From NCBI GenBank assembly GCA_008802785.1, contig VUYT01000022.1:186001-250000 (forward strand): a stretch of DNA of 64,000 bases, in the 5' to 3' direction. The stretch comes from Symmetrospora coprosmae. Its lineage: Eukaryota > Basidiomycota > Cystobasidiomycetes > Symmetrosporaceae. Numbering within the stretch: position 1 is the stretch's first letter; each line of letters starts with the position of its first letter. Below, piece after piece: positions 18,236 through 42,792 of the stretch. The notes under the pieces are model-generated. The model saw nothing but the letters and a program-made list of their open reading frames with translations, was not told the DNA's origin and ran no database searches. The translations under genes and the position numbers were made by a program.

Positions 18236-19679
18236 ATGAGCTCCCTTTGTGCACTCCGCCTGCCCGAGGGGCAGTCGTCACTGTACTCGTCCCGCGCCAT
18301 TGAGATCATCGACTGCCTCCAGCTGCCTCACACCATTCAATGGCACACTGTCCGCACGAGCCCGGAGGCCTTTGAAGCCATCAAGAGCATGAAGATCCGA
18401 GGGGCGCCCGCGATAGCCTCGCTAGCCGCAGTGGCAATTGCGTGCGAACTGCTCAACATTCTCGATGACGAGGCGGACGCGAGCGCAAGCCCGAGCGCAC
18501 TGTCGTCCCAGGAGGCGCTCAGTAGCTGGCTCGATGACAAGTCCAACTATCTGCTGAGCAGCCGCCCAACCGCCGTCAATCTGCGAGAGGCCATGCACAG
18601 GCTGCAGGCCATTGCGGCGGGGGCCTCGCAGGGAGACGACACGCGCGAGACGGCTCAGAAGATAGTGCAGGCCGCCGAGCTCATCTGGACGGAGGATGTC
18701 GCGCGGAACGTCCTCATCGGCGACAACGGAGCGCACTGGCTGCTGCAGAAGCTGGAAGGCGAAGGAGCCATCCAGGCAGGAGAGAAGATCAACGTGCTGA
18801 CCGTGTGCAATACGGGATCCCTTGCTACGTCTGTGGGTCCGGGACATCGTTGGCGCTGCTTGGTCAGCCGTAACGAGGGGCCGACTGACCTTGGATCTCC
18901 TGCAGGGCTACGGCACTGCTCTGGGCGTCATCAGCTCGCTCCACCGCCTCCACCGCCTCAACCACGCCTTCTTCGCCCAGACCGGGCCTTACCAGCAAGG
19001 AGCGCGCCTGACGTCGCTCGAGCTCCTTTTGCAGAACATTCCCTGCACCATGGTGTGCGACACGGCCATGGCGTCCCTGCTCTCCGGGAACAGCGGGCAG
19101 CGGAACGTGCACGCATTTATCCTGGGCGCAGACCGCATCGCCGCCAACGGCGACACGGCCAACAAGATCTCATCGTACCAGATTGCGCTTCTCGCGCATC
19201 ATGTTCCGCCCCCGACGGGCAAGCAGCGCGCCAAGGTCCTCGTGTGCGCCCCCGTCGCGACCTTCGATCTGAACATGGACGACGGTAGCGCCATCGTCAT
19301 TGAGGAGCGGCCATCGTGGGAGGCGTGTACAGTCCGCGGCAAGATCTACACGCACAATGCGGCAAAGGAGAAGAGCGCAACGTCGGAAGCGACGGCGCCA
19401 TCGGCGGAACAGACGTCAGCCGACCCCAGCGAGGTCGTCACTGTCCTCGTCACGCCAGAGGGGACAAATGCGTGGAACCCGGCATTCGACGTCACCCCCG
19501 CTGCGCTCATCGATGGCGTTGCCTGCGAGCTCGGCACGGCCGAGAAGCAGGCCGGTCAAGGTGATAGCTTTGCGCTGCGAGAGTATGTCAAGCAGAGGCG
19601 GGCACAGGACGCTGTCCTTCAATCAGAGTGGAAGGGAGCGGAGCAGGCTGGCGGGGCCAATGGTGTCAAGATAGCGTAG
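18236..19679 (+). CDS. MRI1: Methylthioribose-1-phosphate isomerase
   Basis: Converts 5-methylthioribose-1-phosphate to 5-methylthioribulose-1-phosphate in the methionine salvage pathway. Exons 18236-18832 and 18906-19679 give 456 aa; the 73-nt intron is phase 0. The isomerase core of the eIF2B-alpha/MtnA family is clear: MKIRGAPAIASLAAVAIA near residue 45, the catalytic-Cys motif TVCNTGSLAT and the catalytic-Asp motif LGADRIAANGDTANK, then ISSYQIALLA. The presence of both catalytic residues separates it from eIF2B regulatory subunits. Two low-complexity insertions (Asp/Ala/Ser near residue 85, Ala/Ser/Glu near residue 320) make it longer than the yeast enzyme (~411 aa). The gene converges with THO1, with 102 bp between stops. 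Confidence 0.95.
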
Positions 19680-19781
19680 ATTGCCATCGTTGGGAGTCTA
19701 AGCTCTAGATGAACAACATGGGAATCGCTCACGGCTTGGGAGCACTGACAGCCTGCTGCCACAATTTTTGCCGGCTGAAAC

Positions 19782-20813
19782 TCAAGCCGCCTCATTTGAC
19801 GCAGCTGGTGCGTTGAATCTGGCAGCGCGCTGCTTCCGCTTCTCCTCCTCTGCCGGGTCCAGCTTGGGCGGCGCAGGTTTGGCCGCGGCGGCAGGAGCGG
19901 CCTTGCTGCTCGGCTTGGCCGCGTTTTGACCTCCTGCTTTGGTCTGAGGCTTGCCCTTTCCGCTGGCCGACTGTCCTCGGTTGAGACCTGGTCGTCCATT
20001 CTTCCCGCCGTTCTGGGCGCCCCCTCCGCGGCCGGAAGAAGCGGGACTGCCTGTACCGGCATCTGCGGATGCGCCGGCTTTGTCTGTCCGGATGCGCTTG
20101 TTGGAGAGCTCAGAGTCGAGAGCTGACACGGACTGCGGTGTGTATGCAGGGACGAGCGTGAGCTGCAGCGTCGTATAGTTGGGTAGACTGACGCGCCCGA
20201 CTCACCTTTGCGTCTACGGCGTCACCAGAGATACCGAACCGTTCCGCTCGCTCCAGCTTTGCGATATCCTCCGAGCCTCCGAACCGCTTCAGGCGCTGAG
20301 CGCGCTTCTCCGCCTCAGCAGCTTTGTCTGTAGCACTGGCGTCGGGAAGCGATGCTGCTGCCGCCTCTCCTGCAGTCGCCCCTGTTGAGGCTGTTCCCTC
20401 AGCACCTGCTGTAGCGACGTCCTCGTAGGCAGGAGGAGGGTCTGTTGCAGTGCTTGCACCTGCGGAAGCTGCATCTCCACCGTTCGCGGGTGCCGCGCTG
20501 GCGGAAAGAGACGAAGGGAGCTCGCTGTCCGCCGGGATGGCGCCGAGCTTGTTGCCGGCAGCGGGCTGGTCGGTCGTGCTCTGCCCCGCCTCGCCGGCGC
20601 TCTTCTGGTGCTCCAGAATGCGCGAGACGAGGTCCGCCTTCACGCCGTTCGTGGCCAGGCCGAGCTCAGTGAGGATGGTCTACGAGCCACAGCGCCGTCA
20701 GCTTCGTCTGTCGCTTGGCTAGGCCAGGAGCAAGACACGGCAGGACAGAGCTGCGCACATACCTTGAGCTCTGGCACCTTCTTCACCTGCAGATCTGCTT
20801 GCGTGTATGCCAT
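19782..20813 (-). CDS. THO1: SAP-domain mRNP protein, Tho1/SARNP-like
   Basis: Tho1/SARNP proteins bind RNA and DNA and work with the TREX/THO mRNA export machinery. Exons in gene order are 20813-20763, 20679-20206 and 20108-19782, giving 283 aa in phase 0 throughout. The SAP domain is at residues ~1-40, split by the first intron: LQVKKVPELK, then TILTELGLATNGVKADLVSRI. An Ala/Thr/Ser-rich linker follows. The Tho1-type repeat is recognisable as RAQRLKRFGGSEDIAKLERAE-type sequence (one split motif, RAQRLKRFG and RAERFG), and a basic RGG/Lys-rich C terminus ends in RKQRAARFNAP. The RxxRF pattern occurs three times, as in SARNP. The short first exon (17 codons) starts with the expected MAYTQADL. 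Confidence 0.85.
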
Positions 20814-40576: not shown

Positions 40577-42792
40577 ATGGACTCCAGCAGCTCCACTACA
40601 TCCAGTCCCTTCGCCTCTCCGAGCCGCATTGCGCCCTCGACGCTCGCCAGGCTTAACGACTTCAGATGTGGCAGCAGCAGCAGGCCTACGCGCCCACTTC
40701 CAGTCAGAGCATCAGGACAGGGACGTGCACAGCGACAGCAGACCCCTGAGAATGCTCCCGTCAGCCCTTCCTCGGCACTCGCAGCCCAGCTGTTCCCGAC
40801 GCCGCCCAAGACGGCACGCGCACCCCAGGCCCAGGTCGGCGGCTCCAGCGGCGGCTGCTCCGTCGCAACACCCTTGGCCAAGCGCAAGGCGGGCAGCGAG
40901 CCGGAGACATCGTTTGGAAAGTGTAGGTGTCTTGCATCTGTGCATTCAGTAGCATCTTATGTGTCGTGCTGACGGCCTGCAAACCCCTGCCCCTGCAGCA
41001 CCGAAGAAGAAGCGCGCCGGCACTTCCGATAACGGTACGTTATGCTCGACTGCCATGTATCTCCTTCGTACGCTGTGAGCGGTCAGCTAACGCCGCGTGA
41101 GCTTTGTCATCCTGCAGAGCTTCTCAAGCAAGCATCTCCTGCCAAGAAGCAAGGAAGAGATTCGCGTGCCTCGCGAGTCAAGCAAGCTGCTTCGCCCTCA
41201 AGGGTCATCGCCAAAATCGCCAAGAAGAAGCTCACTGAGAAGGAAGAGCGGCGAGCGAAGGCCCAGGCGGAGGCAGATGCACTGCTTTGCTTGACCTGGA
41301 AGGAGACGACACTCAAACGTGCAAAGAACGAGGAGGACGTCCACGTTCCCGCCGATGCTGCCAAGGACTGGAAAGAGACTGACGACGTAAGTTCGCAAAT
41401 CGAGACAGGCGGTAGCTCCACACTGATACGACTCCCTGTGCACCAGCCTCGATGGCTCGCTCGCGGTCAGCTCCTGCTTCGAGACTGGGATGAGAAGAAT
41501 CCGGCCACGCCGCATGTACACGTTCCCCTCCCTGTCTATGACAGGTCGTTCATTCTCCCCCAGGGGGAGCACTTCGATCTCTCCCTGCCTGCTCTTACTC
41601 TGACGCCCGAGGAGATGGCCTACTTCGCCATTCAGGCGCAGACAAATCCCGGAAGGAAGACTCCCAGCGTTGATTGGGATAACATGACCCAGGAGAAGAT
41701 GGGTTACATTGCTGGACAGTTCGAGGGCGACGGCACGGTGATCGTCGAGAAGGTCGACATCCGCGCTGAGGCGAAGGGAGGCAACACGGGGCAGCTCATC
41801 CTCCGCGTTGAGAAGTCCGAGAACGCATACGACATCTTGTACGTCTTGCAGATCCTCTGTGGAGGCAAAATCTACAAGGGCAAGAAGGAGAAGGGAAATC
41901 AGCAGGCCACCAGGCACTGGAAGCTCGCCGGCTACCCTGCCTTGGATCTCATCAAGAACCTGCTCGCCTACACCACCAGCAAGCGCAACCAGTACAGGGT
42001 CGCCGGCGAGTACCCGCTTGGCATCAATCTCGCCAAACCCAGCTGCAAGCCCAAGCCACTCGCCGTCTTCGATCCGCGCACCGATCCCGAGAAGACCAGC
42101 ACTCCGAGATGGGTCTTCCGATACTTCTCGCAGCTATCGGCACAGAATGACGGCCATTCTGGCATCATGCGATTCCTCGGCGGTGAGATTAAAGCCGTTT
42201 GCAATGGAAAGCAGTGGGTGTGCTTCTCTTTCTCTCGTGTCTACGCGCTCGTTCTGATTATTATTCAAGTCTTGACAGGATTCTGCACATGGCCAATCCC
42301 GTCACTAATGAGATGGCTGCTGCACGCATCAACAGCGTGCGCGACCAGCTCAAGGTGTTGAAGGCGAGCCCTCAGGTCGAGGTAATCGAGCCTCTCACTG
42401 GTCCACAGATGGCAGGATGGATCGACTCAGATGGCTGCCTCTGCCTGACGAAGGATGGCGACAAGTCGTACTCCTTGACCCAGAAGTATCCCCAGATTTG
42501 CCAGGCGTTCCAGCGTCGCTTCCCCGGCAGCCACGTCTACACTTACAACACGCCGTACGGGCCGTACGCAGTCTGGAGTGCCAGGGCATGGAAAGTGCAA
42601 GAGCAGGTAGCGCGGGAGGTCTTCCCTTACCTGTTGGAGAAGCGAGAGCAGGCCGCGATCGTCCGCGCTTCCTCCTTCGAGACCCGCGCCAAAGATCTTG
42701 CGCGTCTCAAGCAGCTCAAGGGTCACTCGAAGATCATCATGGGCGTCGTCCCGCATGTCGCGCCCAGCATGCAGCCCGATGCCGACGACTAG
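40577..42792 (+). CDS. Nuclear LAGLIDADG-type protein with basic N terminus
   Basis: Looks like a domesticated or free-standing homing-endonuclease relative. Exons 40577-40922, 40999-41034, 41118-41386, 41447-42213 and 42279-42792 give 643 aa, all phases closing. The intron 41387-41446 has a GTAAGT donor and a branch-like sequence but is stop-free and a multiple of three, so it could be retained. Residues 1-115 are Ser/Pro/Ala-rich. Basic NLS-like segments follow (PKKKRAG across exon 2, then AKIAKKKL and KEERRAK). LAGLIDADG motif 1 is MGYIAGQFEGDGTVIV (about residue 370), followed by YDILYVLQILCGGKIY as in the endonuclease fold. Motif 2 is MAGWIDSDGCLCL (about residue 520), followed by QICQAFQRRFPGSHVY. 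Both motifs keep the acidic residue before the last Gly. Nuclear introns and local codon use argue against a recent mitochondrial insertion. DNA cleavage, RNA splicing or a lost activity are all possible. Confidence 0.8.

What the first reader, a model, noticed from the sequence alone, without database searches (positions are those of the whole stretch)
40577..42792. Intron-containing nuclear gene with two LAGLIDADG motifs and NLS-like segments
Seen directly: two motifs, GYIAGQFEGDG and MAGWIDSDGCL, ~150 residues apart, each with the acidic residue used in metal binding and each followed by a plausible endonuclease-fold segment, in one 643-aa frame with four nuclear introns and basic PKKKR and KIAKKKL stretches. 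Known: most LAGLIDADG proteins are encoded in organelle introns or inteins. A spliced nuclear, free-standing copy with an added disordered, basic N terminus suggests domestication, perhaps for nuclear DNA or for RNA maturation.
Basis: partly seen in the sequence, partly recalled or inferred. Interest (0 to 1): 0.78.

Follow-up and report, generated by a model that had tools for sequence, protein, structure and literature searches.

The report
Spliced fungal nuclear LAGLIDADG endonuclease pair
This apparently fungal chromosome carries an intron-containing gene for a two-part, probably DNA-cutting protein of a kind best known from organelle introns and inteins, together with an old sister copy and a small dead fragment, and our searches turned up no close relatives elsewhere except one of the sister copy.

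Summary
Window 40577-42792 encodes a 643-aa, five-exon protein with two LAGLIDADG half-domains (motifs at residues 303 and 517: 214 apart, not ~150). Pfam support is borderline, but the PHROG profile that also recognises I-CreI, I-MsoI and I-OnuI matches it at 4e-15, and its second half alone at 5e-5. The motif Asp, and the Lys aligned with I-CreI's catalytic Lys, are kept in 5 of 5 half-domains aligned. A paralogue on contig C5 (41% identical over the core) shares two introns in position and phase; a public protein 83% identical to that paralogue exists. A 150-bp, 91% identical remnant with a one-base insertion lies ~50 kb away. GC3 is that of nuclear genes; no self-splicing intron or intein domain was detected. 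So this is a small, old, nuclear, free-standing LAGLIDADG family that still looks catalytic. Best reading: a host-retained (possibly still selfish) site-specific nuclear endonuclease. Nuclear-localisation evidence is weak; a maturase role for two ORF-less mitochondrial group I introns remains a live rival. Structure prediction failed, a public copy may carry a frameshift, and no target site, expression or selection test was possible. The organism could not be named.

The parts
40577..40922 (+). Exon 1: Ser/Pro/Arg-rich N terminus (residues 1-115), disordered by eye
   Evidence: open frame with GT donor; no Pfam match in residues 1-300
40923..40998 (+). Intron 1 (76 bp, GTAGGT..CTGCAG)
40999..41034 (+). 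Exon 2: carries the PKKKR basic run
   Evidence: the motif is weak evidence by shuffling
41035..41117 (+). Intron 2 (83 bp)
41118..41386 (+). Exon 3: basic linker with KIAKKKL. A public protein (P0001) reads as if its DNA were one base shorter near 41300
41387..41446 (+). Intron 3 (60 bp, phase 0); same position and phase in paralogue B
   Evidence: alignment
41447..42213 (+). Exon 4: ~85-residue, weakly conserved pre-domain and LAGLIDADG half-domain 1 (motif GYIAGQFEGDG at residue 303, D312, K396)
   Evidence: Pfam, PHROG, alignment
42214..42278 (+). Intron 4 (65 bp, GTGGGT donor, phase 2); same position and phase in paralogue B
   Evidence: alignment
42279..42792 (+). Exon 5: LAGLIDADG half-domain 2 (motif MAGWIDSDG at residue 517, D524, K594), C terminus and stop
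   Evidence: phrog_5046 E=4.8e-5 on this half alone; alignment

Best explanation
The gene encodes a nuclear-encoded, free-standing, two-domain LAGLIDADG protein that most likely still works as a site-specific DNA endonuclease. [quoted passage not shown] The basic N terminus would aid DNA binding or nuclear delivery. It belongs to an old gene pair kept by the host lineage, which argues for a host role (a programmed or repair-linked break) over a recent selfish insertion. Shown: gene structure in the sequence, family match, retained active-site residues, paralogue, shared introns, nuclear-type GC3. Inferred: fold, cleavage, nuclear location, host role. The general mechanism is established (recalled) knowledge of LAGLIDADG enzymes.
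For: phrog_5046 is the best PHROG for the whole protein (4.2e-15, two stretches) and paralogue B (7.5e-10, two stretches), for half 2 alone (4.8e-5), B half 2 (4.7e-5), P0002 (3.1e-4) and the control I-CreI (9.4e-11), and for the control I-MsoI (9.3e-10); it is second best for I-OnuI (2.2e-12). Asp of the xDG triplet and the I-CreI K98-equivalent Lys are kept in 5 of 5 half-domains aligned. A and B are 41% identical over the core, with introns 3 and 4 at the same position and phase, so those introns most likely predate the duplication. P0002 is 83% identical to B over 248 aligned positions and ends in FE, where B's frame stops at its intron 4 donor. GC3 is 0.74 and 0.72 for A and the B core, 0.62-0.68 for four neighbouring frames and 0.35 for a mitochondrial cox1 stretch. 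Only A, B and one remnant were found in the genome (the tool calls its counts lower bounds), so there is no sign of proliferation.
Against: AlphaFold models are unusable (mean pLDDT 40 and 30), so the fold is untested. The NLS evidence is weak. No orthologue of A from another species was found, so A itself has no selection test. P0001 reads as if one base shorter in exon 3, so A may be broken in another strain, or one record has an error. The decayed remnant 50 kb away fits a gain-and-loss cycle as well as a stable host gene. Pfam scores are borderline, a Pfam search of the whole genome misses the gene, NCBIfam gives nothing, and profile comparisons with I-CreI/I-MsoI are weak. No target site is known.
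Confidence: 0.5

Rival explanations
1. A still-selfish, free-standing nuclear homing endonuclease gene (WHO-like in behaviour) that cuts an empty allele and is copied in by repair; A and B are two lineages at two sites.
For: Active-site residues are retained in both halves. A 150-bp, 91% identical fragment of A with a one-base insertion lies ~50 kb away in inverted orientation. The family looks patchy: of 5,958 candidates in the widest protein search only 2 scored, one of them A itself.
Against: Only two complete copies were found. Introns are shared by A and B, and B has a public relative at 83% identity, so residence is long. Neighbouring frames look ordinary (GT15, a zinc dehydrogenase, a TFIID subunit) and no interrupted host gene was seen. 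A search with the gene plus 77 and 108 bp of flank found no further copy of the flanks.
Confidence: 0.2
2. A nuclear-encoded maturase imported into mitochondria to help splice group I introns, in the way that the nuclear gene OTP51 serves a plastid intron in plants.
For: The mitochondrial contig C77 (26,122 bp) holds two group I intron matches spanning 178 and 301 nt, too short for an endonuclease ORF; the second is barely over its gathering score (50.6 against 50). LAGLIDADG_1, _2 and _3 gave no match in the assembly, C77 included, though these searches also missed the present gene. LAGLIDADG proteins can be maturases (PMC8393795, passages). The first 40 residues carry net charge +3.
Against: The best helical-moment window starting in the first 60 residues is modest (0.41) and contains two prolines. 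Paralogue B's exon upstream of the core has acidic stretches and basic clusters unlike a presequence, though B's true N terminus is unresolved. Retained Asp and Lys in every half-domain are not expected of a pure maturase.
Confidence: 0.17
3. A domesticated DNA-binding protein (regulator) that keeps the LAGLIDADG fold but no longer cuts DNA, as WhiA does in bacteria (recalled).
For: Long basic N terminus; the first LAGLIDADG helix is degenerate in B (YIVTQLEGDG).
Against: Asp and Lys of both sites are kept in A and B, which a non-cutting binder would not need.
Confidence: 0.08
4. A decaying gene or wrong gene model: the frame is open by chance or no longer functional.
For: P0001 reads as if shifted in exon 3; a third copy is already a remnant; donor 4 is GTGGGT, which I judge a weaker site; 8 splice variants are open.
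Against: Both half-domains are open, match a profile, and align with B across two conserved splice junctions.
Confidence: 0.05

Closest known systems
I-CreI / I-MsoI (LAGLIDADG homing endonucleases of green-algal organelles; origin recalled)
   Same: Share best PHROG profile phrog_5046; same Asp in xDG and Lys near the end of the domain
   Different: Those are single-domain homodimers from organellar introns (recalled); here two fused half-domains with a long basic N terminus in a spliced nuclear gene. Direct profile comparison is weak (hhalign probability 22% and 4%)
HO endonuclease and WHO elements (yeasts)
   Same: Nuclear, free-standing LAGLIDADG gene; HO is the model of a domesticated one (PMC7282813, passages)
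   Different: That paper describes HO/WHO as related to intein-zinc finger fusions; the scan here shows no intein or zinc-finger domain
OTP51 (Arabidopsis PPR protein with two LAGLIDADG motifs)
   Same: Nuclear gene with two LAGLIDADG motifs (PMC8393795, passages)
   Different: No PPR repeats detected here; location and RNA role unknown
UMAG_11064 of Ustilago maydis
   Same: Homing endonuclease gene in a fungal nuclear genome (PMC7593156, abstract and section headings)
   Different: That one is GIY-YIG, recent, telomeric, with mitochondrial codon usage and a mutated active site; here two LAGLIDADG motifs, nuclear-type GC3 and shared introns
Prp8 inteins with LAGLIDADG domains in smut fungi
   Same: LAGLIDADG domain in a fungal nuclear gene (PMC10849329, passages)
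   Different: No intein splicing domain was detected and it is not embedded in a host protein

Membership tests
LAGLIDADG endonuclease superfamily | Significant profile match | tested here: met
   Pfam LAGLIDADG_1 23.2 bits against 23.1 (borderline); phrog_5046 4.2e-15, with controls I-CreI, I-MsoI and I-OnuI
LAGLIDADG endonuclease superfamily | Two motifs (or one in a dimer) with acidic metal ligand | tested here: met
   D312 and D524; Asp kept in 5 of 5 half-domains aligned
LAGLIDADG endonuclease superfamily | alpha-beta-beta-alpha-beta-beta-alpha fold | tested here: inconclusive
   Models with mean pLDDT 40 and 30; no fold search was run
LAGLIDADG endonuclease superfamily | Site-specific DNA cleavage | not testable with these tools
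   needs biochemistry
HO / WHO family | Intein-like region and zinc-finger domain | tested here: not met
   Pfam scan at E up to 10 lists LAGLIDADG_1 and _3 only
Intein | Embedded in a host protein with splicing blocks | tested here: not met
   No splicing-domain match; free-standing frame with its own ATG and stop
Organellar intron-encoded endonuclease | Lies in a group I or II intron of an organelle genome | tested here: not met
   Not on the mitochondrial contig; no Rfam match at gathering score in window 36-47 kb; GC3 0.74
Nuclear-encoded organellar maturase (OTP51-like) | PPR repeats | tested here: not met
   No PPR match in the Pfam scan
Nuclear-encoded organellar maturase (OTP51-like) | Organelle targeting and intron-splicing role | tested here: inconclusive
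   Weak presequence features; two ORF-less mitochondrial group I introns exist; the splicing role cannot be tested here

The most novel reading that the evidence does not exclude
A lineage of fungi outside the budding yeasts has kept a pair of nuclear LAGLIDADG endonucleases for a host-programmed, site-specific double-strand break, an independent parallel to the HO mating-type endonuclease, and the two copies have diverged to cut different sites.
Probability: 0.2. Interest if true: 0.85.

Novelty: new variant of a known kind. Interest (0 to 1): 0.55.

Why it matters
Nuclear, free-standing LAGLIDADG genes seem rare: HO/WHO in yeasts and OTP51 in plants are the cases that my literature searches turned up. 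A further fungal case, with an old gene pair whose active sites are intact, would let one ask how such enzymes become host genes, what breaks they make, and whether programmed double-strand breaks evolved more than once in fungi. If active, it would also be a natural two-domain meganuclease from a eukaryotic nuclear gene.

Tried and rejected
Structure: exon 4 aligned with P0001 and P0002, and exon 5 alone, gave mean pLDDT 30 and 40; fold search was not run because such models are meaningless.

Relatives: protein searches returned 1 protein of 4,665 candidates, 2 of 5,958 and 0 of 240. tblastn on 50,697 phage records gave only a 9%-coverage match at E=7, in two records of one phage. Viral contigs: 0 confirmed of 68, 56 and 49 stretches. 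Genome contigs: 0 of 319. PDB by sequence: one irrelevant match at E=0.51, none for the profiles. hhalign was weak for half 1 and half 2 against I-CreI/I-MsoI and for half 1 against half 2 (22%, 4% and 4%), perhaps because each profile holds two sequences.

Species: the 18S search errored and 5.8S gave nothing. I considered Salmacisia buchloeana because of its 20.1-Mb genome and rejected it: its mitochondrial genome is 86,026 bp (PMC10849329, passages) against 26,122 here.

Mating-type link: of 9 window frames scanned with Pfam, 6 matched (Exo_endo_phos, just below its cut-off; GT15 in two frames; a zinc dehydrogenase; WD40; a TFIID subunit) and 3 did not. No mating-type gene is among these, but most of the window was not scanned. 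A recent transfer from mitochondria is rejected by GC3 and introns.

Literature: 9 searches. Among the titles and abstract starts that I saw, none described a fungal nuclear free-standing LAGLIDADG gene outside HO/WHO. Several searches listed only part of what they found (for example 20 of 86, 10 of 33), and the library lacks most subscription journals, so this is not proof of novelty.

Full report
What is there. The window lies on contig C14 of a 20.05-Mb, 77-contig assembly. The mitochondrial contig has TGA codons inside cox1, and the window's neighbouring frames include a GT15 mannosyltransferase and a TFIID subunit. I take it to be a fungus, perhaps a basidiomycete; that is my inference and the species is unknown. 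Among the splice combinations enumerated, eight are open, 643 to 650 aa. The motifs start at residues 303 and 517, 214 residues apart rather than ~150.

Family. Pfam LAGLIDADG_1 just passes its cut-off on the whole protein (23.2 against 23.1 bits, E=1.4e-4) and fails on half 1 alone (19.7) and on the paralogue (16.3). A six-frame search of the genome with it finds nothing, and NCBIfam gives no match to the core. On half 2 alone Pfam's only hit is a sub-threshold dioxygenase family. The stronger test is phrog_5046, labelled 'HNH endonuclease'. It matches the whole protein at 4.2e-15 in two stretches and half 2 alone at 4.8e-5. To find out what that profile is, I scanned known enzymes: I-CreI has it as best PHROG (9.4e-11), I-MsoI too (9.3e-10), and I-OnuI as second best (2.2e-12, behind phrog_33155 at 2.9e-15). 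It therefore recognises LAGLIDADG enzymes, whatever its label. These three sequences were recalled; I-CreI and I-OnuI were checked against the PDB, I-MsoI was not. Direct profile comparison with I-CreI/I-MsoI is weak.

Active sites. In an alignment with I-CreI, I-MsoI and the I-OnuI C-terminal half, the Asp of the xDG triplet and the Lys aligned with I-CreI K98 are present in 5 of 5 half-domains: both of A, both of B, and the one half that P0002 covers. I-CreI residue numbers and roles are recalled. The I-OnuI half has a gap at the Lys column in this alignment. I-CreI's Gln47 seems to have a counterpart only in the second halves (TQK, CQK), by eye.

Paralogue and kin. Searching the genome with the protein gives ten matches at E up to 10: four are the gene itself, two are a paralogue B on C5 (43 and 46%), one is a fragment on C14, and three are weak matches to the N-terminal region. 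B's core is 41% identical to A's in a global alignment. Its two introns coincide in position and phase (0 and 2) with introns 3 and 4 of A, so the duplicated ancestor was most likely already a nuclear gene with spliceosomal introns. B's upstream exons were not resolved; what is visible has acidic stretches and basic clusters. A public protein, P0002, is 83% identical to B over 248 aligned positions, so B has a counterpart in other, probably related, DNA. P0001 is identical to A across exon 4 and ends inside intron 4, so it does not cover half 2; in exon 3 it reads as if one base shorter near 41300, and in the window's sequence the frame it uses there meets a stop further upstream. I saw only its protein. 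This is either a strain difference or an error, and it is a caution against calling A intact in all strains.

Remnant. 150 bp on C14:278551-278700, minus strand, is 91% identical to part of exon 4 and carries one extra base. It is not a gene. It shows that another copy, or a copied piece, existed about 50 kb away.

Not mitochondrial DNA, not an intein, not in a ribozyme. GC3 is 0.74 (A) and 0.72 (B core), 0.62-0.68 for four neighbouring frames and 0.35 for a mitochondrial cox1 stretch. No Rfam family reaches its gathering score in window 36-47 kb. Pfam shows no intein, zinc-finger or PPR domain. LAGLIDADG_1, _2 and _3 each give 0 matches in the assembly, but all three searches also miss the present gene, so these misses are weak evidence about other copies.

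Where it acts. The NLS-like runs are weak evidence: a run of four basic residues occurs in 17% and K[KR]x[KR] in 51% of 20,000 shuffles of residues 1-216. A mitochondrial presequence is not convincing either (best helical moment 0.41 with two prolines). The mitochondrial contig has two group I intron matches of 178 and 301 nt without room for an endonuclease ORF, the second barely over threshold; the first overlaps the cox1 match. This keeps a maturase role open.

How it most likely works. A single-chain LAGLIDADG endonuclease with both active sites kept would bind one asymmetric site and cut both strands. Shown: sequence features, family, paralogue, introns, GC3. Inferred: fold, cleavage, compartment and host role. 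Long residence with few copies favours a host-kept function over a purely selfish element, but the decayed remnant, the lack of any orthologue of A from another species and the possible frameshift in P0001 are on the other side. The structure models were too poor to use.

Compared with the known. It resembles I-CreI-type enzymes in its residues, HO in being nuclear and free-standing, and OTP51 in being a nuclear gene with two LAGLIDADG motifs, but it lacks the intein and zinc-finger parts described for the HO/WHO group and OTP51's PPR repeats. It is best filed as a new variant of the LAGLIDADG kind. Of the papers cited I saw the abstract and section headings of PMC7593156 and passages of PMC7282813, PMC10849329 and PMC8393795; all others were seen as search listings only.

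Noticed in passing
L016:5869-6046 and L016:9679-9979 (C77:15869-16046 and 19679-19979): Two group I intron matches of 178 and 301 nt in the 26-kb mitochondrial contig, too short for an endonuclease ORF; the first overlaps the cox1 match, the second is barely over its gathering score.
   Followed up: partly
L014:4552-4701, minus strand (C14:278551-278700): Decayed 150-bp piece of exon 4, 91% identical with one extra base, about 50 kb from the gene.
   Followed up: yes
L013:1793-3914 (C5, upstream of paralogue B core): Open frames with very acidic and Ser/Arg-rich stretches that may form a long N terminus of paralogue B; exon structure not resolved.
   Followed up: partly
PHROGs phrog_5046, phrog_12980, phrog_33155: All three are labelled HNH endonuclease, yet known LAGLIDADG enzymes match them (I-CreI and I-MsoI the first two, I-OnuI all three); the labels look wrong.
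   Followed up: partly
window 41290-41310, against P0001: The public protein P0001 reads as if its DNA were one base shorter here, which would shift exon 3.
   Followed up: partly
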